Assembly: GCA_029062895.1 (NCBI GenBank)
Contig: JAIDPF010000067.1
Span: 1-64,000 of the forward strand
DNA from: Lachnospiraceae bacterium
GTDB taxonomy: Bacteria > Bacillota > Clostridia > Lachnospirales > Lachnospiraceae
Length of the DNA stretch: 64,000 bases
Reading direction: 5' to 3'
The notes beneath the pieces are model-generated. The model was not told where the DNA came from. It worked only from the letters and a program-made list of their open reading frames with translations, and did not search any database. This document shows, in pieces, positions 15,771 to 60,447 of this stretch; position 1 is the stretch's first letter, and every line of letters starts with the position of its first letter. Made by a program: the position numbers and the translations under genes.

Positions 15771-18044
15771 TTACATATTATAATACTGTGCCGTTTCTTG
15801 CAAATCCTTCATAAATTTTCCGCCTGCCTTTTCGTATTTAACGAGTACGCCGGCATAGTGCTGCTGTTTACGTGCCAGCTCCGTTTCAAATCTCGTCATG
15901 GATAATTGATAGAACGGATTGTTTCTAATTCCATCACGAATGGATTTATTAAACGGAATGTGGCGGACCAGAATATCACGGGCAACCTTGTTCAGACGGT
16001 AACTGCCTCGTGCTTCAAATTTGATCCAGTTGATATAATCTCGTACAAATACCTCGCGATAATTATTTTTCACATTCTGCATGACGTTCTTTACCTTCTC
16101 TTTTGCATCCGGCGAAAGCTCGCTGTTCTTTTTATAAAACTGCAGATAGTTGCAATACTCCGCAGTCAGCGATTTTTCTCGCAGATCGTTCCAACGCATT
16201 CCTTCGATCTTCCTACAGATCTCCCAGTGGAAACGTCCCATGGCAATCATCATCAGATCTGAAAGATCTGCGGAAGTAAAGATTGGGAACATAAAACGAC
16301 CCGGTGTGTCGGTTTTTGTAGTGGCTGTTTCCTGCCACATCATAGATCGTATTCCCACATTAGGCATCAGGATGATGTCGGGTAGAATTTCTTTAACGAC
16401 CCTGTCATTGGCGATTCCATGATCCTTATCAGAGAAAGGAACTTCCCTGTAAAATATGGAATAGTCAATCATCCGGATCTCATTCATGGCATTTTCCAAT
16501 TTTTCCGCAGTAACGAGCATTTTGTCTATAGAGTTGATCAGGTCGCTACCGTTTAAGATAGGACAGAATGTTGTAATTCTGCCGTAAGTCAGTTTATTGA
16601 TCATGGAAAACATATTGTTGATCTCAAATTCCACACGCAGTCTCGGATCTTTTAGACGCTTCTCCATTTCTTCTTTTGTAATCGTTTTTTCCCTATACTG
16701 TTCCGCCAGAAAAGCAGGATAATTGGCATCATATTCATTTTTAGAAGTTTCTTTCTTTCCCTTATAGATCTGTTTCAGCCACTCATAGATTGTGTAGATA
16801 TGTCTGGAATGACAGATATCCAGATGGGCGCACAGATCATAAAGTTCTTTGACACGGTCTTCCCCTACAAAGGAGGTATCCATGAATCCAAAATTTAGAA
16901 ACATTTCCAGAACTGGTGTCAGCGTGCTTTCATCTTCCACCGCTTTGATAAATACCTTATAATATATCTCATAAAAATCAGCAGAGATCTTCTTTCGGAG
17001 CGCATAGGTTTCCTTGTCGGTAGATAACAAGTCAGGCAGGTTAAAATATTTTTTGATCCTCTCGCTAAGTTCATCAATTTCCGTATTCTGATAACCGGCA
17101 TATTCCAGAATATGGGAAAGACAGTCTTCTGCCAAAACGTCCATTTCTATCCGTTTAACTGACCCGTCTGAAGTAAGCGTGTTCCTGCTTTCTCCACTGT
17201 AATCATATTCCTCATATTCCTTAATGCGTCTGCGGATCAGGCGGTTATTGTAAATCTGGAATTTTTCCGCGGATTGTGTGATCCGGCCAAGAGCTTCCGT
17301 AATCGGTTCAATATCATATTTTTTTGCATACATTTCGATGGAAAGATCAAAATATAGCCTATAAAGATCCAGTTCGTTTTCACTAAGCAGAATATCCTTA
17401 TTGTAAGAAAGATAGCTTTCCAATTCGTTGATACCCAGTGAAAATCTTCGCATCTGTGCGGCGGCTTCCATAATTACGCCCACCGTAAGGCTGTCGTCCT
17501 TCTCCATAAGCTGCAGATACTCCTGCATATATTTCCGTACGATGCTGATGCTGTTATGGACTTCCCATTTTTCCGCCTTATGCTGCATCACCAGCGGTTT
17601 AAACAGTTCCATCTTGGAAAAATTCTGAGTTTCAATTTTATATTTGCCACATAAGATCTTATAATCGTAATATAGGTTTTCCACCAAAGTATGGAACTCG
17701 CTGGCTTTTTCAGAAAGCTCCGTATACAGTTTTAATAGATTGTGCCGCTGTATGACGGCGGCGCGTAGGAAGATATTGCGGATCTTTTCCTTTCCCGAAA
17801 GCGTCCGTTTGAGATTTTCGGAAGTTTCACAGTTTAAAGCAACCAGTGAAGTGTCTTCGATGGCAATATAATCGCACAGATAGATATCCCTTTCCAGAAA
17901 ACCGATAATGGAGTTCTTTTCCAGACGAATCTCCGAAAACTCCATTTTCTGTAATACGCTTCCCTGCTGAATCAGATACCAGCATTTTACCTTATCGTTT
18001 TTTCTTGCGATGACCATATCATGCTCAAATTCTAAGATTTCCAT
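15771..18044 (-). CDS. Large protein with cyclic-nucleotide-binding-like N-terminus
   Basis: A 757-residue soluble protein starting MEILEFEHDM. ATG 18044 is chosen because AAGGAG sits five bases upstream; an in-frame ATG at 18071 lies before that site. Residues about 10-75 (WYLIQQGSVLQKMEF, SIIGFLERD, VALNCE) read like a cyclic-nucleotide-binding beta-barrel, but the phosphate-binding cassette is not convincing. The remaining 680 residues are mostly helical with no motif I know. It is the last gene of a six-gene minus-strand cluster with two VirB6/TrbL-like membrane proteins, so it may be their cytoplasmic partner. That role is inference from position only. Confidence 0.65.
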   Translation of the reverse strand: MEILEFEHDMVIARKNDKVKCWYLIQQGSVLQKMEFSEIRLEKNSIIGFLERDIYLCDYIAIEDTSLVALNCETSENLKRTLSGKEKIRNIFLRAAVIQRHNLLKLYTELSEKASEFHTLVENLYYDYKILCGKYKIETQNFSKMELFKPLVMQHKAEKWEVHNSISIVRKYMQEYLQLMEKDDSLTVGVIMEAAAQMRRFSLGINELESYLSYNKDILLSENELDLYRLYFDLSIEMYAKKYDIEPITEALGRITQSAEKFQIYNNRLIRRRIKEYEEYDYSGESRNTLTSDGSVKRIEMDVLAEDCLSHILEYAGYQNTEIDELSERIKKYFNLPDLLSTDKETYALRKKISADFYEIYYKVFIKAVEDESTLTPVLEMFLNFGFMDTSFVGEDRVKELYDLCAHLDICHSRHIYTIYEWLKQIYKGKKETSKNEYDANYPAFLAEQYREKTITKEEMEKRLKDPRLRVEFEINNMFSMINKLTYGRITTFCPILNGSDLINSIDKMLVTAEKLENAMNEIRMIDYSIFYREVPFSDKDHGIANDRVVKEILPDIILMPNVGIRSMMWQETATTKTDTPGRFMFPIFTSADLSDLMMIAMGRFHWEICRKIEGMRWNDLREKSLTAEYCNYLQFYKKNSELSPDAKEKVKNVMQNVKNNYREVFVRDYINWIKFEARGSYRLNKVARDILVRHIPFNKSIRDGIRNNPFYQLSMTRFETELARKQQHYAGVLVKYEKAGGKFMKDLQETAQYYNM

Positions 18045-18166
18045 ATACACTCCTTGTACCTTTCCTATCATAATAGGTGATTATAAGCCGTGAAAGATTC
18101 CCTTTCTATATTAATGTATCACTATCCATACATTTTCACAAGCATTAAAAAGGTAAAGAGCCGGAT

Positions 18167-19561
18167 TTACTTATATTTATGTGATTGTTCTTTTGCTTTA
18201 CTGTCAACCCCTTTGCTTGTTTTGTTTATACCTTGTTTTACGCTGGATGAAAATTTGTGTCCAAGGGTGCCGATTCCGGAACCTGCCTTGTCTGCTGCCC
18301 ATCCGGCAGCGACAACCACTGTTTGACCCGCCTTTCCACCGATCCAATCAGCTGTTGCCTGTTCTGTTTGTCCGTTATGGGCATTGAGTAATGATGTGAT
18401 CATGGGACCGATCTTTAACATTGCCCAAGCGCCGCCTACTAAGAAAATCAATTTGATAAAATAAGTGGCATCTTTCGATGTAGCGGAACTTCCCCATTGT
18501 ATGGAATTGCCGATGATGATCGGGCAGAGCATCAGATACAGTTTCATGGAAAGTACGGAACCATACCCACTAAATACTTTTGCAATAAATAGTTCCCGCC
18601 ATTTTTTAAATTTTTCTCCATCGTCTAACGGCATGGTAGACACAAATAAAGGTGATACAAGATATAATGTCAGCAATTCAAATATTCTCCGAATAAAGGT
18701 AATACAACAGATCAATAAGATCACTGCAAGGAAGATACCCATGATGATCCCTACCAGATAATCAAATTTACTTAAATCAAAGTATTTTTTTACTTGCTCA
18801 ATATCCAAGTAGCTTATTTCTCCTCTATAAAAGCTTCCCCGTATTCTATAAGTCAGAAGATCCACATTGGATGCTGTACTGCTTAAATTAAGAGAAGAGT
18901 TATTAATCGCCGCATCTAGAGAAGTGATCCCAAACATAATACATCCAAGGGTTTGCTTATGACCGGCTGACGGATCGTATAGCGCAGTATCAAAGGCGGT
19001 TAAAATAATGCCGGAGAGTTGAAGAATAAATATAATAAAAAAGGGTATGGTCAAAAATTGAAAAAAACATTTTAACATGGAACGCATAACTGCACCTACC
19101 GGACGTTTATTTTCAAAATCAAAATCCAATGAGGATTTCATAACGGCATAAATACACAACAGCATCGCGATTCCGATGCCCAGCGCCGTAATGATCCAGA
19201 ATGCCTTAGATACAAGATCTACTGACATCATGGCATTTAACAGTGGCACTTTCTTCTCTCCATAGGAGACTTTAGAAGTACCGATAAAAATATCGAATGC
19301 AATATTCATATAATCAATCATTTTAAAGATCCACGACAAAAAACGATAGAGAATACCACTGAAAAGTTCCTTTAACGAATCTTTGAACCATGGCCATACA
19401 GTTTCTAGTACCTTCGTTAGAATGGGGAGCAGAATTGTATTAAAGATCCATCCAAACAGACGACCTAACAAATCAGCGACAAAATTTACTACTGGAGCTA
19501 GTATTTTTTTCCAGATCCATTCAAAGATTTGGCTGAATAAGCCAAGATATACCATTGTCAT
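18167..19561 (-). CDS. VirB6/TrbL-like multi-span membrane protein B
   Basis: A 464-residue protein. The N-terminal 80 residues are amphipathic and tryptophan-rich. Hydrophobic spans follow near residues 110-135, 155-180, 255-280 and 290-330, and again near 360-390. The phrase SPLFVSTMPLDDGEKFKKW is typical of VirB6/TrbL-like proteins in Firmicute conjugative elements. The C-terminus is a short basic cytoplasmic tail. AAGGAG ten bases before ATG 19561 supports the start. A paralogue lies directly upstream, 27 bases away. No conjugative ATPase, coupling protein or relaxase is present in the window. Confidence 0.7.
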   Translation of the reverse strand: MTMVYLGLFSQIFEWIWKKILAPVVNFVADLLGRLFGWIFNTILLPILTKVLETVWPWFKDSLKELFSGILYRFLSWIFKMIDYMNIAFDIFIGTSKVSYGEKKVPLLNAMMSVDLVSKAFWIITALGIGIAMLLCIYAVMKSSLDFDFENKRPVGAVMRSMLKCFFQFLTIPFFIIFILQLSGIILTAFDTALYDPSAGHKQTLGCIMFGITSLDAAINNSSLNLSSTASNVDLLTYRIRGSFYRGEISYLDIEQVKKYFDLSKFDYLVGIIMGIFLAVILLICCITFIRRIFELLTLYLVSPLFVSTMPLDDGEKFKKWRELFIAKVFSGYGSVLSMKLYLMLCPIIIGNSIQWGSSATSKDATYFIKLIFLVGGAWAMLKIGPMITSLLNAHNGQTEQATADWIGGKAGQTVVVAAGWAADKAGSGIGTLGHKFSSSVKQGINKTSKGVDSKAKEQSHKYK

Positions 19562-19588
19562 ATGTTTCGTCTCCTTATCTTAATCTTA

Positions 19589-20836
19589 TTAACGCATACG
19601 CATTTTTGCCGCTCTTTTTGCTTTGCCGGCAACTCCGGCTGCCATTCTGGCAGTAGAAAGCATGGTCCCCGCAGACTGTTCTGCCGCCGCTGCCGCCTGC
19701 GGATTCAGGATCATAAGGGGGATATGATGGGTTTTATAGACGGCATATGCGCCGCCGATCAGAAACAGTGTCAAAAGGAAATAAGATACTTCTGCATTTG
19801 TCGGATACAAATTTATCGTACCGTCTGCAAAAATCGGGATAAACATAACATATAAACGGATAGAAAATACGCAGCCAAAGGCTGAAAAAAATTTCGCTAT
19901 GAACAGATCTTTCCACTGACAGAACATACTGCCCCCGTCTAACGGCATTGTTGATACAAACAGGGGCGACGTCAGATACAGGATTACGATCTCAAAGAGT
20001 CTGCGGATAAATAATAAGATGGATGCCATCAGCATAATAATTAAAAATATGCAGGAAACAAAACCTATGCCATAATTAAATTTTTTATATTCAAAATTAT
20101 TTTCAACATCTTTGCTTCCATATTTCCAGCTACTGTTTCCATTATAGAAAGCAGAGCGTATGTAATCCTTAAAACTTGCCCTATCTGGGGCGCTGGAAAT
20201 ATTATATTCAGTGTTCTTCGCTGCGTTCATACTGGAAGAAAGCCACAAAATAGTTGCCAAACTGACATTATTACTGGTCATACTTTCATACGTTGACTGA
20301 GTCCGGACGCTTAACGCCGTTTCAATGCCGTCCAATACGATCGTAGAAATCTTTAACATAAAGATACATAGAAAAGGCACCAGCATAAAAGTAAAGCAGC
20401 ACTTTAATGCGCTTCCCAGAACTTTTCCGATGGGATTTTTATCCTCAAGCGCCATATCCGATGTGGACTTTGCAACAGCATAAATTGTAAAAATAAATGA
20501 CAATCCTACTGCCAGACAGGTAATTACCAGAAAAGCTTTCTGTATTCCGTTGATTTTGAAAAAAAGCTCCAGAACAGACAGAGCTTCTTCTTTTTTATTG
20601 GGTATCGTATAAACAACATCTTCGCTGCCGGAAAAAAAATCAAATATTTTCACCATAAAATCTACCATGCTTAACAAAGATGTAAATAACCAGTATAACA
20701 AAGCTGCCAATGCATTTTTTACGGCATCAGTCAAAGCGTCTAGAACGTTCTTTAAAAAAAATTCCAGAATTGGAATAAAAATGCCTTCAAATATTTCGGA
20801 TAGTACATCGGATATTACTTTTAAAAAATCGTCCAT
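19589..20836 (-). CDS. VirB6/TrbL-like multi-span membrane protein A
   Basis: A 415-residue paralogue of the next gene, with the same plan: amphipathic N-terminus, five or six membrane spans, SPLFVSTMPLDGGSMF near residue 285, and a basic tail rich in Arg/Lys. GAGGAG eight bases before ATG 20836 marks the start. Two VirB6-like proteins side by side, followed by a large soluble protein, suggest a hetero-oligomeric membrane complex. The VirB6 relationship is inferred from the TMPLD phrase and span pattern. Confidence 0.7.
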   Translation of the reverse strand: MDDFLKVISDVLSEIFEGIFIPILEFFLKNVLDALTDAVKNALAALLYWLFTSLLSMVDFMVKIFDFFSGSEDVVYTIPNKKEEALSVLELFFKINGIQKAFLVITCLAVGLSFIFTIYAVAKSTSDMALEDKNPIGKVLGSALKCCFTFMLVPFLCIFMLKISTIVLDGIETALSVRTQSTYESMTSNNVSLATILWLSSSMNAAKNTEYNISSAPDRASFKDYIRSAFYNGNSSWKYGSKDVENNFEYKKFNYGIGFVSCIFLIIMLMASILLFIRRLFEIVILYLTSPLFVSTMPLDGGSMFCQWKDLFIAKFFSAFGCVFSIRLYVMFIPIFADGTINLYPTNAEVSYFLLTLFLIGGAYAVYKTHHIPLMILNPQAAAAAEQSAGTMLSTARMAAGVAGKAKRAAKMRMR

Positions 20837-20869
20837 AATAGGTCTCCTCTTTTTCTGGTTTGGATGGAG

Positions 20870-21700
20870 TCAGATATTTTCATATTTTTTGTATTGTCTC
20901 CATAACAAAAGAACAATACATCCGGCAGTCATGCCATAACAGACAATTAAAAATTTATTTCCGTATAAGGAGTGATATAATCTTTCATTGTTCAAAATAA
21001 CATAATTAACTGCCGACGGCAGATTAAAACCAATGTGCATTGCAATGGAATAGAGAAGGTTATCCTGCCGTATGGATACCTTCGCAAGCAGATATCCCAT
21101 AACCAGTCCATACAATCCCCAGAATAGATTGATATGACACAGGGCAAATAAAATACTGACGACTGCTACCGCCTTTTTTTCTCCAAATACCGGCAGCAGT
21201 CGTCCTAACATATATCCCCGGAATACAATTTCTTCCAGAACCGGTGCTAATACCACCGCTGAAATGATAGCAAGCGTTACATCATAAGCCTTAAAGCTGC
21301 CGTATGACAGCTCTTCATAGGACTGCATCAGCGCTTTTGGAAGAAGGGTATATATCGAAGAAATACTGACTGCTGCCGCCGCTCCAAATAGGATCATTCC
21401 AAACAAATACGTTTTATTGAGATCCTGAAGAGATAAGGTAACCTCCTCCATGATGTATGACTGGCGCTTTTTAGCAGATTTCCAAAAGATCAAAATGACG
21501 AAGACCAATCCTAAAAAAGTATAAAAATTAGAAGCATACATATAATATTCTGCAGACACTTCGTAATTCCCGCGGTTTAACAATGGAGATAATACGGCCA
21601 GCAAAAATGGTGGTACGATCATATAGATCAGCACCGGTTTTATGGCGTGCAGGAAAGCGCCTCCGTATTTCCATATCTTTTGCTGCCAAGTCAGATTCAT
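20870..21700 (-). CDS. CPBP-family intramembrane metalloprotease
   Basis: A 276-residue protein with about seven membrane spans. It carries the three CPBP/Abi motifs: PVLEEIVFRGYMLGRL (about residues 158-173), LFALCHINLFWG (about 190-201) and SIAMHIGFNLPSA (about 222-234), which supply the glutamates, histidines and asparagine of the active site. Members cleave membrane substrates, including bacteriocin-related peptides and prenylated proteins in other organisms. It lies 19 bases after the STAS gene in the same cluster. The substrate is unknown; the neighbouring membrane proteins are candidates. Confidence 0.9.
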   Translation of the reverse strand: MNLTWQQKIWKYGGAFLHAIKPVLIYMIVPPFLLAVLSPLLNRGNYEVSAEYYMYASNFYTFLGLVFVILIFWKSAKKRQSYIMEEVTLSLQDLNKTYLFGMILFGAAAAVSISSIYTLLPKALMQSYEELSYGSFKAYDVTLAIISAVVLAPVLEEIVFRGYMLGRLLPVFGEKKAVAVVSILFALCHINLFWGLYGLVMGYLLAKVSIRQDNLLYSIAMHIGFNLPSAVNYVILNNERLYHSLYGNKFLIVCYGMTAGCIVLLLWRQYKKYENI

Positions 21701-21719
21701 GAGATTTTTGATCCTTTCC

Positions 21720-22004
21720 TTATTCCATTGTGAAAATGCCTGAAAAACCGGTTATCTCAAAGATCTCCATAATCTGGGGGTTTACGCCGGTAATGATCAT
21801 AGAGCCATCCTTTTGATGGAGTTTTTTTTGAGTTGCAAGTAATACTCGTAAACCAATAGAACAGATATAGACTGTATCCGTCATATCAATTACAATATGG
21901 GAATTCTGACCGTCCCCCATGGCTTCTTTTAGCAGTTCTTCAAATTTTGGCGCATTAATGGCGTCGATTCTTGACATTGCTCTTACAGTAATTTCCTCTG
22001 TCAT
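21720..22004 (-). CDS. STAS-domain protein (anti-sigma-factor antagonist type)
   Basis: A 94-residue single STAS domain. VRAMSRIDAINAPKFEELL and HIVIDMTDTVYICSIGLRVL match the SpoIIAA/RsbV fold. The usual phospho-acceptor serine should sit in the DTVYICSIGLR stretch (family D-x-x-x-x-S-S-G-L), where one serine remains. The start at 22004 is preferred over in-frame upstream ATGs because these belong to a recurring leader sequence (see 22005-22084). Partner kinases of the SpoIIAB/RsbW type are not visible in the window, so it may act inside this cluster. Confidence 0.8.
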   Translation of the reverse strand: MTEEITVRAMSRIDAINAPKFEELLKEAMGDGQNSHIVIDMTDTVYICSIGLRVLLATQKKLHQKDGSMIITGVNPQIMEIFEITGFSGIFTME

Positions 22005-22084
22005 ATTAATAACCATGCCTTTCCGTAACCTGCGAATTTGGGCCGCAGGCACAAATTTGCGTGTGAAAAATTTATTTTTCACAC
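22005..22084 (-). promoter_or_regulatory. Recurring structured 5' leader, copy 1 (STAS gene)
   Basis: Reading toward the gene: a perfect GTGTGAAAAA hairpin (22061-22084), then GCAAATTTG, the apical stem GTGCC-TGC-GGC, CAAATTCGC, then CGCAGGTTACGGAAAGG and ATTAATATG. The same arrangement precedes genes at 25090, 29469, 33970 and 60353 (minus). The conserved tail ends exactly at the start codon. Confidence 0.65.
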
Positions 22085-22148
22085 TATCCTCCATGCTACG
22101 ATTGTTTTTTATAGCTTTGCTTTGAGCAGACAATCTCTTTATACGGAC

Positions 22149-22871
22149 TCAGTACGTATATTTTTCGATATATTCGTCATACTGTATTTTCGCTTTATTG
22201 TGCAGCGTGCGGGAAATGGGATATATTTTTCCATTGACCAGTTCTACTTCCGTAGCCGAAATCCGCCTGATATAATTGCCGTTTACAATAGTAGATTTAT
22301 GGATTCTTACAAAACGATGGTCTTCCTGTATTTCCTCTTCAAACCAGTCCAGTTTCCCATATGCTTCGATACTGCTATGGTTTACCATATTCAGGATGAC
22401 TTTATGAGCCCGGCTTTCCAGATTAATAATGTTGCGCAGGCGTATATGGTACCAACCGTCTTTTCGCTTAAATCTTAAACATGCGCAATCATTTTCTTGA
22501 AAAAAGCTTTTACTATGTTCTAAGATTCTGATTAATTGATTCTTGTCAAAAGGAAACATTAAATAGGCGTCTGCCATATTTTCCCACGCCTGCAGGGCGT
22601 ATTTTTCTTCTCCGGAATATAAAACGCAGTACAAATTCTGCCTATAACTGCGGATGATATTCATGATTTCAATTCCGTTTAAACCTGACATATCCGACCG
22701 TATAAAACAGATGTCATGTCTTCCATTTTGTAAGATATCATCCACCATCTGCATACCGCTGCTGATTTCACGTATCTGATAAGGTTCTTTTGATGCCGAA
22801 ATGAGACTTTTTAACAAAGCAGCCAATTCTTTTCTTATCAATTGATTAGAATCACATATGGTATAATTCAT
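22149..22871 (-). CDS. LytTR regulator with degenerate receiver domain
   Basis: A 240-residue protein with receiver and LytTR domains (DNA-binding part about residues 135-235: IINLESRAHKVILN, VRIHKSTIVNGNYI). In the receiver, the phospho-acceptor position reads R58 (CFIRSDMSGLNG instead of LD-x-D-M-P), the conserved lysine is F106 (LMFPFD instead of L-K-P-F-D), and the second acidic residue is S8. It therefore probably works without phosphorylation. GGAG precedes ATG 22871. It is first in the minus-strand six-gene cluster and has a direct-repeat site right in front of it. Confidence 0.85.
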   Translation of the reverse strand: MNYTICDSNQLIRKELAALLKSLISASKEPYQIREISSGMQMVDDILQNGRHDICFIRSDMSGLNGIEIMNIIRSYRQNLYCVLYSGEEKYALQAWENMADAYLMFPFDKNQLIRILEHSKSFFQENDCACLRFKRKDGWYHIRLRNIINLESRAHKVILNMVNHSSIEAYGKLDWFEEEIQEDHRFVRIHKSTIVNGNYIRRISATEVELVNGKIYPISRTLHNKAKIQYDEYIEKYTY

Positions 22872-22902
22872 CTTTGCTCCATTATCCTGTCCTGCAGTTT
22901 AT

Positions 22903-22936
22903 AGAACTATAGTGCATCATAACTAAGAACTATAGT
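22903..22936 (-). promoter_or_regulatory. Direct repeats, candidate LytTR operator
   Basis: AGAACTATAGT occurs twice, at 22903-22913 and 22926-22936, separated by 12 bases and starting 32 bases upstream of the LytTR gene. Spaced direct repeats about two helical turns apart are the known binding format of LytTR domains, so autoregulation is likely. No clear -35 box is visible, as expected for an activated promoter. Confidence 0.5.
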
Positions 22937-23091
22937 ACGTTGTAATAATAATTTACAATTCTTATCCTTCTGGTATTTGAAATTGAATGGTTTGCTATTT
23001 TTATTGAAATTATAACAAATAATTTTTTTATTCTTTTTAATTGACAAAAATAACATTGATATAGACAAAATATGTTTTCGGAAAAATAAAA

Positions 23092-25012: not shown

Positions 25013-25027
25013 AATAGGTATGGTATC

Positions 25028-25089
25028 GCAAATATTGTGCCTGCGGCAGTATGTATTCGCAGGTTGTGAAAAGGTATGGTTTATTAATT
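25028..25089 (+). promoter_or_regulatory. Recurring structured 5' leader, copy 2 (lipoprotein 25090)
   Basis: GCAAATATTGTGCC-TGC-GGCA pairs back on TATTCGC. It is followed by CGCAGGTTGTGAAAAGG and TTATTAATT in front of ATG 25090. It shows compensatory changes in the stem relative to the other copies while the TGCC-TGC-GGC apex is kept. Confidence 0.6.
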
Positions 25090-26784
25090 ATGAAAAAATT
25101 AGTATTTATTATGGTTTTCATTTTTTTGTGCGGGTGTACGTTACAAGAAAATCATGAAGAAGATTATGACGGAAATTATGGAATAATCAGTGAAAATAAG
25201 CCGGATAACATGGTTTCAGAAAATGCGGCAGAAAATGTGGTATCAGAAGATGAAATTATACCGGAAACTGTGATGACGGATGATACGGAAGATATGGAAG
25301 ATATTTTTCCTAAAAGGTATTATGCAGTATTAGCAAGTCAGAAATCGACATGGTCATTAGACGAACGGTACGGGCAATATTATGAAGATCTGGGAGGCTC
25401 CTGGCTAAGTTATTATGATTCCTATATGAACGTACTTGACAGGGATTCTGAGATCATTGATTTCTCAGCATATGCAACCACGAGGAGAAACATGTTGTTG
25501 CAAAAATATGCTTCTCTGGCAGAAGCTCTGAGAGATCCGTCACTGAATGCGGAAATGGAAGCTGTCAGGACGGCATATGGTGTGGATGATGAAACCATAG
25601 GAAGTTATGTGGATAGTTACATGCAGCGTGCGGACACCTGTGTTTATAGTTTTGTCAGAAAATGCATGATAGGGGAATTGGAACAAGATAAGCCTTATAG
25701 GGATTTCTATTTGAAGACATGTCTTTATAATGGATATTTTGGCTACACTTTTGATTCGCAGACCGGGGAGAGGCTGGCGTTGACAGATATTGTAACGGAT
25801 CAGGAACAGCTGCCTGAGCTGATCATGCAATCTTTGGAAGAAACCTATCAGGAAACATTTCCGGAAGGAGTGGAGAGTATGATCACAGAACTGCTGCAGG
25901 ACGATGCACTTGCATGGTCTCTGGGATATCAGGGAATCACCTTCTATATACAGTCAGGACAGATCGGCATTGATGATATCCGTATTTATCAGGCGCTAAT
26001 TCTTTTTGCGGCAGAACCGGATCTCTTTGTGGAAAAATATTGTGATATTCCGGAATATTATGCAATGCAATATGACTTTATGGAAGGGGTAGTAGCGGAT
26101 ACTGATAATGATGGTAAAGCAGAGCGGATCGATATGGGAAATTGGGATAATGTTGCAGACAAATTTGATGAGTGGGTATGGCTTAACAATAATGAGTGTC
26201 TTACCCTGATATCCGGAAGAAACGGAGATATGTTCCTATACCTTACTGCAGATGGCCAGTTGGACTATACGGGAGAAGCAGCCATTTATGATCTTTCAGG
26301 GGAAGAACCTGCTTATATTTATACGGAAAGTGGATTGATTGAACGAAATAGGCTGATAGATCCTGCCTGTGTAATTAACAGGCTTTACGACGAGCATATG
26401 CTTATTGTAGGAGGTGGGTTTGCCGACGCATATCATATATCGGATATCAGCGAAACCGGTATTCCGGAAGAAAGTATCCATACATATACATGGTTTTACA
26501 GTAGATGGAATTTACTGTATCAGGTTGAGAATTCCATAGAAGGAAGAATTGTAAATGTGGATGGAGAGGATCAGGGAGAAAGCATTACTCTGACAGAAGG
26601 TATGTGGGTCATGGCTTTTAGGACAGATCTGCATTCGTATATTGATTTTATCTTAGAAGATGGGCGGCTTTGCCGGCTAACAGTAGAAGAAGAGGATGGT
26701 ATCTGTTATTATGAGGGTCAGTCATTGTCAAATTACTTTGATATTATGTACACAGATAGCTATCTAACATATGGCCAAGAATAA
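25090..26784 (+). CDS. Large secreted lipoprotein with RsiV/DUF3298-like domain
   Basis: A 564-residue lipoprotein. The signal peptide ends IFLCGC (lipobox), followed by an acidic linker to about residue 65. Residues about 200-310 (TGERLALTDIV, GYQGITFYIQSGQIG) resemble the DUF3298/RsiV domain found in cell-wall-associated and anti-sigma proteins. The C-terminal half contains DTDNDGKAERID, an aspartate-rich calcium-loop-like motif. ATG 25090 is the first codon of a good signal peptide and lies at the end of the recurring leader. Cell-surface location is confident; function unknown. Confidence 0.75.
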   Translation: MKKLVFIMVFIFLCGCTLQENHEEDYDGNYGIISENKPDNMVSENAAENVVSEDEIIPETVMTDDTEDMEDIFPKRYYAVLASQKSTWSLDERYGQYYEDLGGSWLSYYDSYMNVLDRDSEIIDFSAYATTRRNMLLQKYASLAEALRDPSLNAEMEAVRTAYGVDDETIGSYVDSYMQRADTCVYSFVRKCMIGELEQDKPYRDFYLKTCLYNGYFGYTFDSQTGERLALTDIVTDQEQLPELIMQSLEETYQETFPEGVESMITELLQDDALAWSLGYQGITFYIQSGQIGIDDIRIYQALILFAAEPDLFVEKYCDIPEYYAMQYDFMEGVVADTDNDGKAERIDMGNWDNVADKFDEWVWLNNNECLTLISGRNGDMFLYLTADGQLDYTGEAAIYDLSGEEPAYIYTESGLIERNRLIDPACVINRLYDEHMLIVGGGFADAYHISDISETGIPEESIHTYTWFYSRWNLLYQVENSIEGRIVNVDGEDQGESITLTEGMWVMAFRTDLHSYIDFILEDGRLCRLTVEEEDGICYYEGQSLSNYFDIMYTDSYLTYGQE

Positions 26785-26830: not shown

Positions 26831-27967
26831 ATGAAAAGAACATTAGTGATTATTATGAGTTTCATACTTGCGGTGGGTTTACCAGCTTGCGGTCAGGATG
26901 CGGAAAGTACCAGCGAATTAGAACAGCAAACCGGGGAGGCAGGGGACAGGGACTTAACCCCGCAGATGGAGGAATCAGAGGCAGGGGACAGCGAATCAGA
27001 ACAACAGGGTGAAGAAGCAGAGACAGAGAATGACGGATTAGAACAGCAGGGCGATGAATCAGAAACAGAGAATGATGAATCAGAACAACTGATCGAAGAT
27101 GCAGAGATATCTGGGAAATGCGGAGATCATTTAATATGGTATTATAAAAATGAAGTTTTATACATTACAGGTACAGGAGAAATGCTTGACTATGATTTTC
27201 GCGGAGATACTGATGAAACGGACGGTTTCGTTTGTATATATGGCACCACTACACCATGGGACGATTTGCATGAGAAGATAGATGAGATCATCATTGATGA
27301 AGGTGTAACAAGCATAGGCAAGTGGGCATTTTATGATTGCAGTAATCTAACGGAAATCACCATACCTGAAGGCGTAACAAGCATAGGCGACAATGCATTT
27401 GATGATTGCAGTAATTTAACGGAAATCACCATACCTGAAGGCGTAACAAGCATAGGCGTCAATGCATTTTTGGGATGCAGTAGTTTAAGGGAGATCACCA
27501 TACCGAATTCCATGACAAGCATAGAAAACGGTGCATTTTGTGGTTGCAGCAGTTTAAGGGAGATCACGATACCTGAAGGCGTAACAAGCATAGAAGAGTA
27601 TGTATTTGGGAGTTGCAGTAGTTTAACGGAAATCACCATACCTGAAGGCGTAACAAGTATAGGTGACTGGGCATTTTCGAAATGCAGTAGTTTAACGGAG
27701 GTCACGATACCGGATTCTGTGACAAGCATAGGTTGCGGTGCATTTTCGGGATGCAGTAGTTTAAGGGAAATTACGATACCGGATTCCGTTACAAATATAG
27801 TTGATGAGGATCGTTATAGTTGGGCTAGAAACGGAAGCATAAATTTAAATATATTTGATTCTTGCAGTGATTTAACAGTTTATTATTCCGGCAATAACCT
27901 TGATGAATATATTAACAGTTATCAAGATGAGTGGAACAGCAATCATATAACATGGATCAAGCAATAA
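26831..27967 (+). CDS. BspA-type leucine-rich-repeat lipoprotein
   Basis: A 378-residue surface protein. The signal peptide has lipobox GLPAC, then an acidic Glu/Gln-rich linker (to about residue 95) with repeated short phrases, then a beta-strand start module and seven 23-residue leucine-rich repeats of the TpLRR/LRR_5 type (LTEITIPEGVTSIG). GGAGG precedes ATG 26831. Such proteins bind host matrix or other bacteria in gut species; here that is family knowledge only. It lies 46 bases after another lipoprotein gene, possibly in the same transcript. Confidence 0.88.
   Translation: MKRTLVIIMSFILAVGLPACGQDAESTSELEQQTGEAGDRDLTPQMEESEAGDSESEQQGEEAETENDGLEQQGDESETENDESEQLIEDAEISGKCGDHLIWYYKNEVLYITGTGEMLDYDFRGDTDETDGFVCIYGTTTPWDDLHEKIDEIIIDEGVTSIGKWAFYDCSNLTEITIPEGVTSIGDNAFDDCSNLTEITIPEGVTSIGVNAFLGCSSLREITIPNSMTSIENGAFCGCSSLREITIPEGVTSIEEYVFGSCSSLTEITIPEGVTSIGDWAFSKCSSLTEVTIPDSVTSIGCGAFSGCSSLREITIPDSVTNIVDEDRYSWARNGSINLNIFDSCSDLTVYYSGNNLDEYINSYQDEWNSNHITWIKQ
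27305..27787 (+). repeat. Seven tandem 69-bp leucine-rich-repeat units
   Basis: Seven units of exactly 69 bases, each coding for 23 residues beginning VTSI (once MTSI) and ending ITIPEG or ITIPDS. The units are nearly identical at DNA level at several junctions, indicating recent duplication or recombination between units. A degenerate eighth unit follows. Confidence 0.9.
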
Positions 27968-28231: not shown

Positions 28232-29404
28232 ATGGCAAGAGAAATTGAAACAAAGTGCCTGCATCTGGAGGAAGAAGAGGGAGGAAGCCAAAATTATGGG
28301 GCAATCAGTTATCCCATTTTCCAGACGGCAACCTATGCGCATCCCGGCGTAGGGAAAAGCACCGGTTATGATTATAGCAGATTACAGAACCCTACAAGGG
28401 AACATTTGGAAAAAGTGGTAGCTTCATTGGAAAATGGAACAGACGTCTTGGCGCTTACAACAGGCATGGCGGCCATTTCTTTGATGATGGAGCTGTTCCG
28501 GCCGGGAGATCATCTGATTGTGGATGCGGATCTTTATGGGGGCAGCATCCGGCTTTTTAACAACGTATCGAAGAAAAACGGAATTACATTTTCAAGTATT
28601 AACTGTTATAAAGAGGATGTGGAAAGCTATATCAAGGAAAACACAAAGGCTGTTTATATAGAGACGCCGACGAATCCCATGATGAATGTGACGGATATAG
28701 AGAAGCTGGGAAAGTTAGCAAAAAAACATCATTTATTGCTGATCGTTGACAATACCTTCCTTTCCCCATATTTCCAGAACCCGTTGGATTTGGGAGCAGA
28801 TATTGTTGTACATAGCGGGACGAAATATCTTGGCGGCCACAATGACACACTGGCAGGTTTTTTGGTCACAAACAGGGAGGATATCGGTGAGAAGTTCCGG
28901 TTTCTCATTAAGACTACAGGAGCAGGGCTTGCACCTTTTGACAGCTGGCTGATTCTGCGCGGAATAAAAACACTGGGAATCCGTATGGAAAAATCACAGC
29001 AAAACGCCATAACGATTGCAAATTGGTTAAAGGAGCAAAAGGCGGTATCAAAGGTAATCTATCCGGGCCTTCCCACGCATCCGGGCCATGAAATTATGAA
29101 AAAACAGGCAAGAGGATTTGGGGCTATGATCACATTTCAGCTGGAAAGCAAAGAGTTTGCGCAGGCTGTTTTAGAAAAGGTCCGCATGATCAAGTTCGCG
29201 GAAAGCCTTGGAGGTGTTGAAACGCTGATCACTTATCCGACAACTCAGACACATGCAGATGTGCCGAAGGAAGTCCGTGAGAGAAATGGGATTACGGAAA
29301 GTACCTTGAGACTTTCTGTTGGAATCGAAGATGTAAAAGATTTACTGGATGAGCTGGAAGCAGTTTTTGAAGAGATAGAAGGGGACAGATTGAAAAATCT
29401 TTGA
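28232..29404 (+). CDS. Cystathionine gamma-synthase / lyase family PLP enzyme
   Basis: A 390-residue enzyme of the Cys/Met metabolism PLP family. The cofactor lysine is K198 in HSGTKYLGGHND. TGMAA (about residue 78), YGGS (about 102) and the substrate-binding SLGGVETLITYP (about 323) are all present. Family members either join a homoserine ester to cysteine or cleave cystathionine, and sequence reading alone cannot decide which. AGGAGG precedes the ATG. It heads a run of sulfur genes (C-S lyase, gamma-glutamylcysteine ligase, amidotransferase), and its promoter carries the shared sulfur box. Confidence 0.9.
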   Translation: MAREIETKCLHLEEEEGGSQNYGAISYPIFQTATYAHPGVGKSTGYDYSRLQNPTREHLEKVVASLENGTDVLALTTGMAAISLMMELFRPGDHLIVDADLYGGSIRLFNNVSKKNGITFSSINCYKEDVESYIKENTKAVYIETPTNPMMNVTDIEKLGKLAKKHHLLLIVDNTFLSPYFQNPLDLGADIVVHSGTKYLGGHNDTLAGFLVTNREDIGEKFRFLIKTTGAGLAPFDSWLILRGIKTLGIRMEKSQQNAITIANWLKEQKAVSKVIYPGLPTHPGHEIMKKQARGFGAMITFQLESKEFAQAVLEKVRMIKFAESLGGVETLITYPTTQTHADVPKEVRERNGITESTLRLSVGIEDVKDLLDELEAVFEEIEGDRLKNL

Positions 29405-29468
29405 TTTTTCAATCGCAATTTGGGCCTGCGGCCCAAATTGCAAGTTATAGAAAGGTATGGTAATTAAT
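29388..29468 (+). promoter_or_regulatory. Recurring structured 5' leader, copy 3 (malY gene)
   Basis: A perfect 12-bp hairpin, GATTGAAAAATC (29388-29399) with its complement at 29403-29414, overlaps the stop of the previous gene. It is followed by a perfect 12-bp hairpin, GCAATTTGGGCC (29415-29426), loop TGC, complement 29430-29441, then AAGTTATAGAAAGG and ATTAATATG. It is the most stable copy of the leader family. Confidence 0.65.
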
Positions 29469-30650
29469 ATGGCTGAGAAAAATCTTGATTTTGATAAGAT
29501 CATAAACAGAAGGAATACAAGAAGCCTGAAATATGATTTCGCCGGGAAGCGCGGTATGCCGGAGGATGTGCTGCCGCTTTGGGTGGCTGATATGGATTTT
29601 GAGACATCCTCTTATATCGAGGATGCCCTGATAGAACGGGTTAAGCATGGGATCTTTGGCTATAGTGAGGTGCAGACCCCTTATTTTGAAATTGTCAGGG
29701 ACTGGATGAAGAAACGCCATAACTGGGAGACCCAGGAAAAATGGCTGGTGAAAACACCCGGAGTCGTCTTTGCACTGGCAATGGCGGTAAGGGCATATAC
29801 AGAGCCGGGAGATAGCGTGCTGCTCCAATTACCGGTATATTATCCTTTTTCAGAGGTGATTGAAGATAATGGAAGAAAGGTGGTAAGTAGCAACTTATAT
29901 CTGGGAGAGGATAACCGTTATCATATAGATTTTGAAGATTTTGAGCAAAAAATCGTAGAGGAACAGATCAAGCTGTTTTTCCTGTGCAATCCCCATAATC
30001 CGGTGGGAAGGGTATGGAGTGAAGAGGAACTGACGAAGTTAGGCGATATTTGCCTGAAATATCATGTCATTGTTGTAAGCGATGAAATTCATCAGGACTT
30101 TGTATTTAAAGGTAAACATTTGGTGTTTGCAAATTTGAAAAAGGAATATGAGGATATCAGCATCACCTGTACTTCGCCGAGTAAAACATTTAACCTGGCA
30201 AGTATGCTGTTGTCAAACATTTTTATTCCAAACCATGAATTAAAACATAAATTCCGCAGAGAAATGGATGCGGCGGGCATCAGTCAGCTTAGCGTTATGG
30301 GGCTTGTTGCCTGTGAGGCCGCCTATAGCAAAGGAGAAGAATGGTATCAGGCGATGCTTTCCTATGTGGCGGATAACATAGAATTTACAAGAATGTTTGT
30401 AGAAGAAAATTTGCAGGGCGTACGCATGATTGAACATGAGGGAACCTATCTTGTGTGGCTTGATTTCAGGGGAACCGGATTTGAAGTGGATGAAATTGAG
30501 AGACGGATCATACATAGGGCAGGATTATGGCTTGACAGTGGTAAAATCTTTGGGGAGTGCGGCAGGGGTTTCCAGAGAATTAATATAGCATGTCCAAGAA
30601 GTGTGCTGTCAGAGGCATTGGAGCGGATAAAAGAGGCATTTCAGGGATAG
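29469..30650 (+). CDS. malY: MalY/PatB-type PLP C-S lyase
   Basis: A 393-residue fold-type I aminotransferase-like lyase. LPLWVADMDFE (about residues 35-45) is the family signature, NPHNPVGRVWS binds substrate and cofactor, SDEIHQDF carries the aspartate to the pyridine nitrogen, and K239 in SPSKTFN holds PLP. MalY/PatB enzymes split cystathionine and other cysteine S-conjugates into a thiol, pyruvate and ammonia. ATG 29469 is taken as the start because ATG 29457 is part of the recurring leader. It follows the CGS-family gene and precedes gshA, in line with a sulfur role. Confidence 0.9.
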   Translation: MAEKNLDFDKIINRRNTRSLKYDFAGKRGMPEDVLPLWVADMDFETSSYIEDALIERVKHGIFGYSEVQTPYFEIVRDWMKKRHNWETQEKWLVKTPGVVFALAMAVRAYTEPGDSVLLQLPVYYPFSEVIEDNGRKVVSSNLYLGEDNRYHIDFEDFEQKIVEEQIKLFFLCNPHNPVGRVWSEEELTKLGDICLKYHVIVVSDEIHQDFVFKGKHLVFANLKKEYEDISITCTSPSKTFNLASMLLSNIFIPNHELKHKFRREMDAAGISQLSVMGLVACEAAYSKGEEWYQAMLSYVADNIEFTRMFVEENLQGVRMIEHEGTYLVWLDFRGTGFEVDEIERRIIHRAGLWLDSGKIFGECGRGFQRINIACPRSVLSEALERIKEAFQG

Positions 30651-33897: not shown

Positions 33898-33969
33898 AAA
33901 AATTGTGCCTGCGGCATAGCACTAAAGTGTATTAAAGTTTGCAGGTTACGGAAAGGCAAGGTAATTAAT
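33898..33969 (+). promoter_or_regulatory. Recurring structured 5' leader, copy 4 (mnmA)
   Basis: TTGTGCC-TGC-GGCA apex, a longer AT-rich middle, then GCAGGTTACGGAAAGG and ATTAATATG. Here the usual in-frame upstream ATG is AAG, which shows that translation starts at the final ATG and that AAGG acts as the ribosome binding site. Confidence 0.6.
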
Positions 33970-35058
33970 ATGAGCGGTAAGAAGACGGTGGTTGTTGGTA
34001 TGTCCGGTGGAGTGGATTCATCGGTGGCCGCTTATTTATTAAAGAAGCAGGGATATCGTGTCATCGGTGTGACAATGCAGATTTGGCAGGAAGGGCAGCA
34101 GGAGAATGAATCAGAAGGCGGATGCTGTGGATTAAGTGCCGTGGAAGACGCCAGAAGGGTGGCGCAGGTATTAGATATTCCCTATTATGTCATGAATTTT
34201 AAGCAGGACTTCAAACGATATGTGATTGACTATTTTATTAAGGAATATCAGACTGGACGCACCCCCAATCCTTGCATTGCCTGCAATCGTTATGTTAAAT
34301 GGGAATCGTTGTTAAAGCGCAGCATGGAAATCGGAGCGGATTACATTGCAACAGGTCATTATGCCAAAATACGTCGTGGAGTCAACGGACGTTATGCCAT
34401 TGAAAAATCCGCGACAAACAGGAAAGATCAGAGTTATGCCCTATATAACCTGACACAGGAACAGCTGGAAAGAACGCTGATGCCAATCGGAGAATATGAA
34501 AAGAACAGAGTACGGGAAATTGCAGAACAAGCAGGACTGCCGGTGGCACATAAACCGGATAGTATGGAGATCTGTTTTGTGCCGGATGGTGATTACGCAT
34601 CTTATATAGAGACAACTGCAGGAGTAAAATCCGAGCCGGGTAATTTTGTGGATATGGAGGGACATGTGCTGGGCAGACATCGGGGAATCATTCATTATAC
34701 GGTAGGACAACGTAAAGGATTGAACTTAGCATTAGGGTATCCGGCATATGTGGTCAGGATTAAACCGGAAACGAATGAAGTTGTAATCGGACGCCTGAAA
34801 GATAATCTGTCCGAAAAGGTATATATATCTCAGATAAACTATATGTCAGAGGCAAATTTCTCAGAACATAAGACATATCTTGGTAAGATACGCTATAACC
34901 ACAAAGGGGCTTGCTGTAGGGTGCGGCAGGTGGAAGAGGACATGTATGAGTGCATTTTTGCAGAGCCACAGAGAGGGGTAACACCGGGACAGGCACTGGT
35001 ATTGTATGACGGCAGTCTGGTGGCAGGAGGCGGAACGATCCTACATCATGTTGAATGA
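33970..35058 (+). CDS. mnmA: tRNA-specific 2-thiouridylase
   Basis: A 362-residue enzyme that thiolates uridine-34 of Lys, Glu and Gln tRNAs. The ATP-pyrophosphatase loop GMSGGVDSS is near residue 10, the first active-site cysteine lies in NPCIACNRYVK (about 96-106), the tRNA-binding motif in ATGHYAKI and the second cysteine in MEICFVPDG (about 197). The C-terminal beta-barrel is complete. It is followed 28 bases later by a cysteine desulfurase gene, its natural sulfur donor. Confidence 0.95.
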   Translation: MSGKKTVVVGMSGGVDSSVAAYLLKKQGYRVIGVTMQIWQEGQQENESEGGCCGLSAVEDARRVAQVLDIPYYVMNFKQDFKRYVIDYFIKEYQTGRTPNPCIACNRYVKWESLLKRSMEIGADYIATGHYAKIRRGVNGRYAIEKSATNRKDQSYALYNLTQEQLERTLMPIGEYEKNRVREIAEQAGLPVAHKPDSMEICFVPDGDYASYIETTAGVKSEPGNFVDMEGHVLGRHRGIIHYTVGQRKGLNLALGYPAYVVRIKPETNEVVIGRLKDNLSEKVYISQINYMSEANFSEHKTYLGKIRYNHKGACCRVRQVEEDMYECIFAEPQRGVTPGQALVLYDGSLVAGGGTILHHVE

Positions 35059-59786: not shown

Positions 59787-60353
59787 CTATCGTAGATTCT
59801 TGATCCCTTGATTGATAAGTTTGGAAGAAAGCTGTATCAATTCCTCCAAGGGCATTTTCTTCCCATCCATGACCCATTGACGGTAGATACCAACGGTTGA
59901 AACCTGTACATACTGGAGGAGGATTCTCTGTGTATATTCATCAAAAGATTGAAACCAGCGTGATTCATGCCAACGGTCATTCATGGTCTGTTCCATGAGA
60001 TCTTTTTGGATAACTCCATAACTTCCGCTGCAGGTAATCCGGTCATAAACTTCACCTGCAGAGGCGGAAAAAGTGAAGAATGCCCGGTTAATCTTATCCA
60101 TGTCTTCGGGAATCCTGTAACCGGCTATCTGCTCCAGATAGCGTGATGAAAAATCAGTCTTCAATTCGCTGAGCAATTCATCCAGATTGTTATAATACTG
60201 ATAAAAGGTCTTTTTGTTGATCATGGCTTGGTCGGACAATTCCTTTACTGTAATGGAATCATATTCTTTCTCACAGATAAGTGCTTCAAAAGCACTTTTT
60301 ATATTGGTGATAGTTCTGCGGATGCGCAAATCCTCTGTTCCATTAAGTTTCAT
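59787..60353 (-). CDS. TetR-family transcriptional regulator
   Basis: A 188-residue regulator. Residues about 10-60 (RRTITNIKSAFEALI, SITVKELSDQAMINKKTFYQYYNNLDELL) form the TetR helix-turn-helix; the rest is a ligand-binding helical bundle. It is divergent from the acetyltransferase/aldo-keto reductase operon, whose promoter region holds an 18-bp palindrome, its likely operator. The gene itself sits behind the recurring 5' leader (copy 5). Confidence 0.92.
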   Translation of the reverse strand: MKLNGTEDLRIRRTITNIKSAFEALICEKEYDSITVKELSDQAMINKKTFYQYYNNLDELLSELKTDFSSRYLEQIAGYRIPEDMDKINRAFFTFSASAGEVYDRITCSGSYGVIQKDLMEQTMNDRWHESRWFQSFDEYTQRILLQYVQVSTVGIYRQWVMDGKKMPLEELIQLSSKLINQGIKNLR

Positions 60354-60447
60354 ATTAATAACTATGCCTTTCTCTCATCCTGCGATATTTGGACCATAGG
60401 CACAAATTCGCGATTGAAAAATAAGATATCAATCTTATTTTTCAATC
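60354..60447 (-). promoter_or_regulatory. Recurring structured 5' leader, copy 5 (tetR)
   Basis: Reading toward the gene: a perfect 16-bp hairpin (60412-60427 with 60432-60447, arm core GATTGAAAAATAAGAT), then GCGAATTTGTGCC-TAT-GGTCC, ATATCGCAGG, GAAAGG and ATTAATATG. The apex is TAT instead of TGC, with changes in the stem that mostly keep the pairing. Confidence 0.6.

What the first reader, a model, noticed from the sequence alone, without database searches (positions are those of the whole stretch)
15771..22936. Six-gene membrane cluster: degenerate LytTR - STAS - CPBP protease - two VirB6/TrbL-like proteins - cNMP-binding-like protein
Seen: six co-directional genes with mostly short gaps, two of them paralogous polytopic proteins with the SPLFVSTMPLD phrase of VirB6/TrbL, and no other conjugation genes (no VirB4, VirD4 or relaxase). 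Combining a membrane channel-like pair with a protease, a STAS switch and a 757-residue soluble protein carrying a cyclic-nucleotide-binding-like N-terminus fits no pathway I know. It could be a signal-gated membrane pore, secretion or defence system; this is inference from architecture.
Basis: partly seen in the sequence, partly recalled or inferred. Interest (0 to 1): 0.78.

Follow-up and report, generated by a model that had tools for sequence, protein, structure and literature searches.

The report
VirB6 part of split secretion system
Five of the six genes are the membrane-channel part of a bacterial type IV secretion machine whose motor and pilus genes sit at two other places in the same genome, a scattered layout known from Rickettsia but not, in the papers held here, from a gut Firmicute; the sixth gene only happens to be next door.

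Summary
The six co-directional genes are real, but they are not one new pathway. Both polytopic proteins score far above the curated cut-off for the VirB6-like ICE family NF045848 (230.6 and 215 bits, cut-off 90), and the modelled VirB6b best matches VirB6/TrwI of R388. In 57 related loci the STAS, CPBP-protease, VirB6a and VirB6b genes, often with a LytTR regulator, belong to a conserved T4SS operon that also encodes VirD4, VirB4, an Ig-like protein, a solute-binding-like lipoprotein and a VirB2-like pilin. The pieces look like one machine: trees of both halves give the same sister (SH-aLRT 99-100), presence is matched across genomes, promoters are homologous, and the C32 ATPases are under strong purifying selection in two genomes with the same split. 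The 757-aa cNMP-binding-like gene is a separate, widespread gene, statistically unlinked to the T4SS. No relaxase was found near these operons. Verdict: a dispersed, probably working Gram-positive T4SS; new variant of a known kind; cargo unknown.

The parts
22149..22871 (-). LytTR response regulator with a degenerate receiver (phospho-acceptor Asp replaced by Arg, Lys by Phe)
   Evidence: Pfam REC 42.2 and LytTR 52.4 bits; alignment with 17 T4SS-linked relatives; LytTR genes flank the T4SS operon in 15 or more of 57 related loci
21720..22016 (-). STAS anti-sigma-antagonist-type protein, about 98 aa; conserved serine position kept
   Evidence: ant_ant_sig TIGR00377 65.4 bits, over cut-off; conserved S in 27 of 27; STAS in 27 of 57 T4SS loci
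20870..21700 (-). CPBP (Rce1-like) glutamic intramembrane protease with all catalytic residues
   Evidence: PF02517 67.9 bits; EE..R, H, H..N intact; CPBP in 36 T4SS loci, usually directly before VirD4
19589..20836 (-). VirB6a, polytopic channel protein
   Evidence: NF045848 215 bits, cut-off 90
18167..19561 (-). VirB6b, polytopic channel protein, without the 200-1000-residue C-terminal extension of its relatives
   Evidence: NF045848 230.6 bits; AlphaFold model pLDDT 81, top seven PDB matches are VirB6/TrwI of R388; extension lengths
22995..23070 (-). promoter region homologous to that of the RsbW-VirD4-VirB4 operon on contig C32 (TTTGYTATAATTTCAATNAAA at 22999-23019)
   Evidence: 76-bp ungapped alignment, score 68 against a shuffle maximum of 49 in 1000; 21-mer only at these two places in 200 kb of this genome
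22903..22936 (-). LytTR-operator-like perfect 11-bp direct repeat ACTATAGTTCT with 12-bp spacer
   Evidence: function inferred
18159..23090 (-). block LytTR-STAS-CPBP-VirB6a-VirB6b, absent from close relative G330, where other DNA lies between the same flanks
   Evidence: blastn and alignment with L157
15771..18044 (-). neighbour, not a part: 757-aa protein with cNMP-binding-like N-terminus and an uncharacterised conserved C-terminus
   Evidence: 103 of 299 Lachnospiraceae genomes, never beside VirB6 in 39 loci, no association with the T4SS, own upstream region shared with G330

Best explanation
The block 18159-23090 is the VirB6 islet of a type IV secretion system dispersed over the chromosome. 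Shown: in relatives one operon encodes (kinase)-LytTR / RsbW-STAS-CPBP-VirD4-Ig-VirB6a-VirB6b-VirB4-lipoprotein-Ig2-pilin; in this genome the same parts lie on three contigs, C80 (window: LytTR-STAS-CPBP-VirB6a-VirB6b), C32 (RsbW-VirD4-Ig-VirB4-lipoprotein-Ig2, with a SpoIIE-type phosphatase and a second STAS) and C87 (pilin alone). Inferred: an ancestral operon was duplicated or broken, each copy kept complementary genes and the same promoter, and the products still meet in the membrane. VirB6a and VirB6b form the membrane channel/stalk base, VirB4 and VirD4 from C32 power assembly and substrate loading, the C87 pilin forms the stalk or pilus. The CPBP protease probably processes or regulates a membrane or pilin substrate; RsbW, STAS and the phosphatase form a partner switch gating the system; the phosphorylation-independent LytTR protein probably regulates its own block through the direct repeats at 22903-22936. 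Cargo (DNA or protein) is not determined. The 757-aa neighbour is not a component.
For: VirB6 family scores and VirB6-fold match. Conserved T4SS operon in 57 loci; 55 have VirB4 or VirD4/Ig adjacent and the other two are on 3-kb contigs; 28 of 28 loci with both flanks also hold the pilin. Own-genome VirD4 and VirB4 on C32 with no VirB6 there, and the window pair the only NF045848 hits in the genome. C32 identities: T4SS-DNA_transf 177 bits and CD1115-family VirD4 293.8 (cut-off 250); P-loop_TraG 72.6. Pilin on C87, 62.2 bits, cut-off 40. Matched presence of VirB4 and VirB6b: genus 10 both, 1 VirB4 only (a 72% complete genome), 0 VirB6 only, 24 neither (p=6e-8); family 15 of 16, and the 16th (G048) shows a VirB6b-type tail directly before VirB4. 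Trees of VirB6a+b (window), VirB4 and VirD4 (C32) each place this genome beside L240/G326, SH-aLRT 99-100; VirB6 divergence follows the VirB4 trend of intact systems. Same split layout in G331 with dN/dS 0.041 (VirD4) and 0.055 (VirB4). Homologous promoters of the two half-operons. G330 lacks both blocks at clean sites.
Against: No expression or interaction data. VirB6b has lost the long C-terminal extension of its relatives. G331, which shares the C32 layout, shows no VirB6 (72% complete genome). The window block has no close orthologue, so its own dN/dS could not be measured. The receiver is degenerate and the partner kinase is not beside it, so regulation has decayed or been rewired. C32 VirB4 scores just under its NCBIfam cut-off (566.6 against 590). 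The DUF1292 gene of the operon was not traced in this genome. C32 has its own STAS, so the window STAS need not be the T4SS one. The genome is a draft in 115 contigs.
Confidence: 0.75

Rival explanations
1. The block is a decaying leftover of a conjugative element; VirB6a/b and CPBP are no longer used.
For: VirD4, VirB4 and pilin are missing from the block; VirB6b lost its extension; the receiver lost its phosphorylation site; the block and the C32 island are absent in close kin.
Against: All ORFs and the CPBP catalytic residues are intact; VirB6 divergence lies on the trend of intact operons; matching ATPases persist elsewhere under strong purifying selection in two genomes with the same split; shared promoter.
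Confidence: 0.15
2. The split is apparent only: an assembly or binning artefact, with a normal operon in the real genome.
For: Draft genome of 115 contigs; three contigs involved.
Against: G331 independently shows the same VirB6-less C32 operon with tight gene junctions; C32 and C80 flanks both match G330 at over 90% DNA identity, so both belong to this lineage; only one VirB6 pair exists in the assembly.
Confidence: 0.05
3. One reading: the six genes form one signal-gated pore or defence system with the cNMP-like protein as sensor.
For: Same strand, 95-bp gap between VirB6b and the cNMP-like gene.
Against: The cNMP-like gene is unlinked in 39 of 39 loci, not associated with the T4SS (family p=1.0, genus p=0.72), present at the same place in relatives without the block and with its own conserved upstream region; no PADLOC hit.
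Confidence: 0.03
4. The block is a domesticated VirB6 pore module with a new function of its own, independent of the C32 system.
For: It keeps its own regulator, STAS and protease; it is physically separate.
Against: Matched presence with VirB4 and congruent trees are not expected of an independent module; no genome in the genus or family set has VirB6 without VirB4.
Confidence: 0.05

Closest known systems
Mollicute ICE T4SS (Mbov_0395 pilin-like, Mbov_0396/MMCAP2_0566 VirB6-like, Mbov_0397 VirB4)
   Same: VirB6 and pilin proteins score above the NCBIfam cut-offs of these families; VirB4 just under (566.6 against 590); plasmid-borne relatives of the VirB4 are mostly Spiroplasma at 25-30% identity
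   Different: No relaxase or ICE context found; two VirB6 paralogues; CPBP, STAS/RsbW, LytTR and Ig-like proteins added; parts dispersed over three loci
Rickettsia vir T4SS 'archipelago' (PMC2653234)
   Same: Chromosomal T4SS scattered in islets, pilin alone in one islet, duplicated VirB6 with large extensions (as in the relatives here), congruent component trees
   Different: Gram-positive host, different T4SS class, split seen in two genomes only while relatives keep one operon
Patescibacteria T4SS (PMC12102498; review PMC12857230)
   Same: Monoderm host, PF18895-type VirB2-like pilin, relaxase mostly absent, VirB6/VirB4/VirD4 core
   Different: Not an epibiont; partner-switch and CPBP genes in the operon; here dispersed
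Tn1549/CD1115-type ICE of Clostridia (MPF-FATA)
   Same: VirD4 exceeds the CD1115 family cut-off (293.8 against 250)
   Different: VirB4 is only distantly CD1110-like (153.7 against 325); no relaxase in the loci examined

Membership tests
VirB6-like, MMCAP2_0566 family (NF045848) | score above the curated cut-off | tested here: met
   230.6 and 215 bits against 90
VirB6-like, MMCAP2_0566 family (NF045848) | VirB6 fold | tested here: inconclusive
   Top seven PDB matches are R388 VirB6/TrwI, probability up to 1.00, but E=0.015 and TM 0.28/0.42: supportive, not proof
Type IV secretion system | VirB4 ATPase and VirD4 coupling protein present | tested here: met
   Both on C32 of the same genome, not in the window
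Type IV secretion system | components assemble into one machine | not testable with these tools
   Only indirect: matched presence, congruent trees, shared promoter
Conjugative element (ICE) | relaxase near the T4SS genes | tested here: not met
   None in the window block, in the C32 and G326 genes scanned, or among the 25 Pfam families listed for 74 flanking ORFs of relatives; 8 further families were not shown and a whole-genome relaxase search was not run
Conjugative element (ICE) | integrase and attachment sites | tested here: inconclusive
   No integrase in the block or among the C32 island genes scanned; one phage integrase among 74 flanking ORFs of relatives; att sites not analysed
Rickettsia-type dispersed T4SS | components in several conserved chromosomal islets | tested here: inconclusive
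   Three loci here; the C32 layout is also in G331, the other two islets could not be traced there
Anti-phage defence system | match to a known defence family | tested here: not met
   No PADLOC match except one at E=0.07

The most novel reading that the evidence does not exclude
Lachnospiraceae carry a relaxase-free, pilin-bearing T4SS under partner-switch and LytTR control that is not a conjugation system but a resident secretion or contact machine, and in this lineage it has broken into three chromosomal islets while still working in trans.
Probability: 0.4. Interest if true: 0.75.

Novelty: new variant of a known kind. Interest (0 to 1): 0.55.

Why it matters
A 2025 review (PMC12857230) says nearly all known Gram-positive T4SS functions are DNA transfer and calls the existence of dedicated effector translocators there a long-standing question; PMC12102498 says Gram-positive T4SS classes lack VirB2 pilins. 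A conserved Lachnospiraceae operon with VirB2-like pilin, VirB4, VirD4, two VirB6, an intramembrane protease and a partner switch, without a relaxase nearby, makes that question testable in culturable gut bacteria such as [Clostridium] asparagiforme DSM 15981. The split in this genome shows that such a machine can be dispersed with its parts still under selection. It also warns that element-finding by co-location misses such systems.

Tried and rejected
Six-gene unit: rejected, because the cNMP-like gene is unlinked in 39 loci and statistically independent. Defence system: no PADLOC support. Phage tail link: weak tape-measure hits of VirB6b (E=0.003) taken as chance or helical similarity. Plasmid origin: no plasmid encodes a VirB6b relative. 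Fold of the 757-aa protein: single-sequence model useless (pLDDT 34); its profile matches only CRP/FNR/CNG-type domains in the PDB, at the N-terminus. A VirB6 remnant on C32: none. Shared promoter upstream of the pilin: no excess similarity. LytTR-type direct repeats upstream of the C32 and C87 genes: none. STAS as a uniquely displaced part: withdrawn, since C32 has its own STAS. The 21-bp promoter motif in relatives' operons: not found, so it is lineage-specific.
Full report
WHAT IS THERE. The window has six minus-strand genes at 15771-22871. Pfam and NCBIfam give REC-LytTR, STAS, CPBP protease, two members of the VirB6-like family NF045848 far above its cut-off, and a 757-aa protein with no family of its own. 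The receiver has lost its phospho-acceptor Asp and conserved Lys, while the CPBP catalytic residues and the STAS serine are intact. The AlphaFold model of the second membrane protein (pLDDT 81) has R388 VirB6/TrwI as its seven best PDB matches, at modest TM-scores.

THE SIXTH GENE IS A NEIGHBOUR. The 757-aa gene occurs in 103 of 299 Lachnospiraceae genomes and 20 of 35 of the own genus. In 39 fetched loci none has the VirB6 pair beside it, and it shows no association with the T4SS. Close relatives G330, G304 and G305 keep the gene (93-96% identical) at the same place beside parB but lack the other five genes; in G304 and G305 a hemerythrin-receiver gene precedes it. Similarity to G330 runs through the gene and its upstream region and stops at about 18158, then resumes at about 23090. 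The block proper is therefore 18159-23090. The gene's family has a cNMP-binding-like N-terminus (18 of 25 members; PDB profile hits to CRP/FNR/CNG proteins) and an uncharacterised conserved C-terminus.

THE OTHER FIVE BELONG TO A T4SS. Relatives of the VirB6 pair sit in a conserved operon: often a divergent kinase and LytTR, then RsbW, a DUF1292 protein, STAS, CPBP, VirD4, Ig-like, VirB6a, VirB6b, VirB4, solute-binding-like lipoprotein, a small protein, a second Ig-like protein, pilin and a large unknown protein. Of 57 loci, 55 have VirB4 or VirD4/Ig adjacent; the other two are on 3-kb contigs. All 28 loci with both flanks contain the pilin. Hosts are Lachnospiraceae, Hungatella, Enterocloster, [Clostridium] asparagiforme DSM 15981 and a few Peptococcaceae. 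No relaxase family appeared among the families listed for the genes examined.

THE SPLIT. In this genome VirD4 and VirB4 lie on contig C32 with 1.6 kb between them, filled by the Ig-like gene; no VirB6, CPBP or pilin is there. The only NF045848 matches in the genome are the window pair. The pilin is alone on C87 among metabolic and other unrelated genes. G331 has the same VirB6-less C32 layout at 97% identity. In G330 and G305 the C32 island is missing and its flanks join cleanly.

ONE MACHINE? (a) VirB4 and VirB6b presence match across the genus (10 both, 1 VirB4 only, 0 VirB6 only, 24 neither) and family (15 of 16; the sixteenth has a VirB6b-type tail before VirB4); relatedness inflates these p-values. 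(b) Trees of VirB6a+b, VirB4 and VirD4 all put this genome beside L240/G326 with SH-aLRT 99-100. (c) VirB6 divergence follows that of VirB4 as in intact systems. (d) C32 VirD4 and VirB4 have dN/dS of 0.041 and 0.055 between G000 and G331, which would be odd for a motor without its channel. (e) The upstream regions of the window block and the C32 operon share a 76-bp ungapped alignment above all 1000 shuffles and well above 135 other upstream regions; a 21-bp core occurs only at these two places in 200 kb. This suggests duplication of one operon followed by complementary loss, or shared control. The step from these facts to an assembled machine is inference.

HOW IT PROBABLY WORKS. From established T4SS biology: VirB6 forms the inner-membrane channel and stalk base, VirB4 drives assembly, VirD4 recruits substrate, VirB2 forms the stalk or pilus. 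RsbW, STAS and a SpoIIE-type phosphatase beside the C32 genes suggest a partner switch. The degenerate LytTR protein probably acts without phosphorylation on the perfect 11-bp direct repeat at 22903-22936. The role of CPBP is a guess.

KNOWN OR NEW. The parts are known T4SS families, closest to Mollicute ICE proteins. Dispersed T4SS islets are known in Rickettsia (PMC2653234). Relaxase-free pilin-bearing monoderm T4SS are known in Patescibacteria (PMC12102498). Paper searches found no description of this Lachnospiraceae system, though the library holds open-access papers only. I rate it a new variant of a known kind.

LIMITS. Draft genomes; no expression data; whole-genome relaxase search not run; the window block lacks a close orthologue for dN/dS; G331 (72% complete) lacks a detected VirB6.

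Noticed in passing
window 22001-22081, 25027-25093, 29404-29471, 33935-33973, 60350-60422; also L161, L207, L208: A dispersed short repeat of about 60-80 bp (REP-like), with similar copies in G330, G304, G305 and G331; one copy sits just before the STAS start inside the block, so the block has probably been in this lineage for some time.
   Followed up: partly
window 15771-18044 and L157-L159: Widespread Lachnospiraceae protein family (103 of 299 genomes) with cNMP-binding-like N-terminus and a strongly conserved, unnamed C-terminal region (residues 300-766); beside a hemerythrin-receiver gene in G304 and G305.
   Followed up: partly
window 26831-27967: Lipoprotein-like ORF with about seven 23-residue leucine-rich (BspA-like) repeats encoded by a 69-bp tandem repeat at 27298-27780; the repeat array gives several offset matches in G304.
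   Followed up: no
L160 9033-10532 (G000 contig C70): A second, distant VirD4-like gene (PF02534 137.6 bits) in the same genome, perhaps of another mobile element.
   Followed up: no
L240-L295: VirB6b proteins of relatives carry C-terminal extensions of about 200-1100 residues, often repetitive and Pro/Gln-rich; the window copy has none.
   Followed up: partly
L156 5720-7465 and 11897-13687: MATE transporters fused to a C-terminal HATPase_c_2 (RsbW-like) domain, near the SpoIIE-type phosphatase in the C32 island.
   Followed up: no
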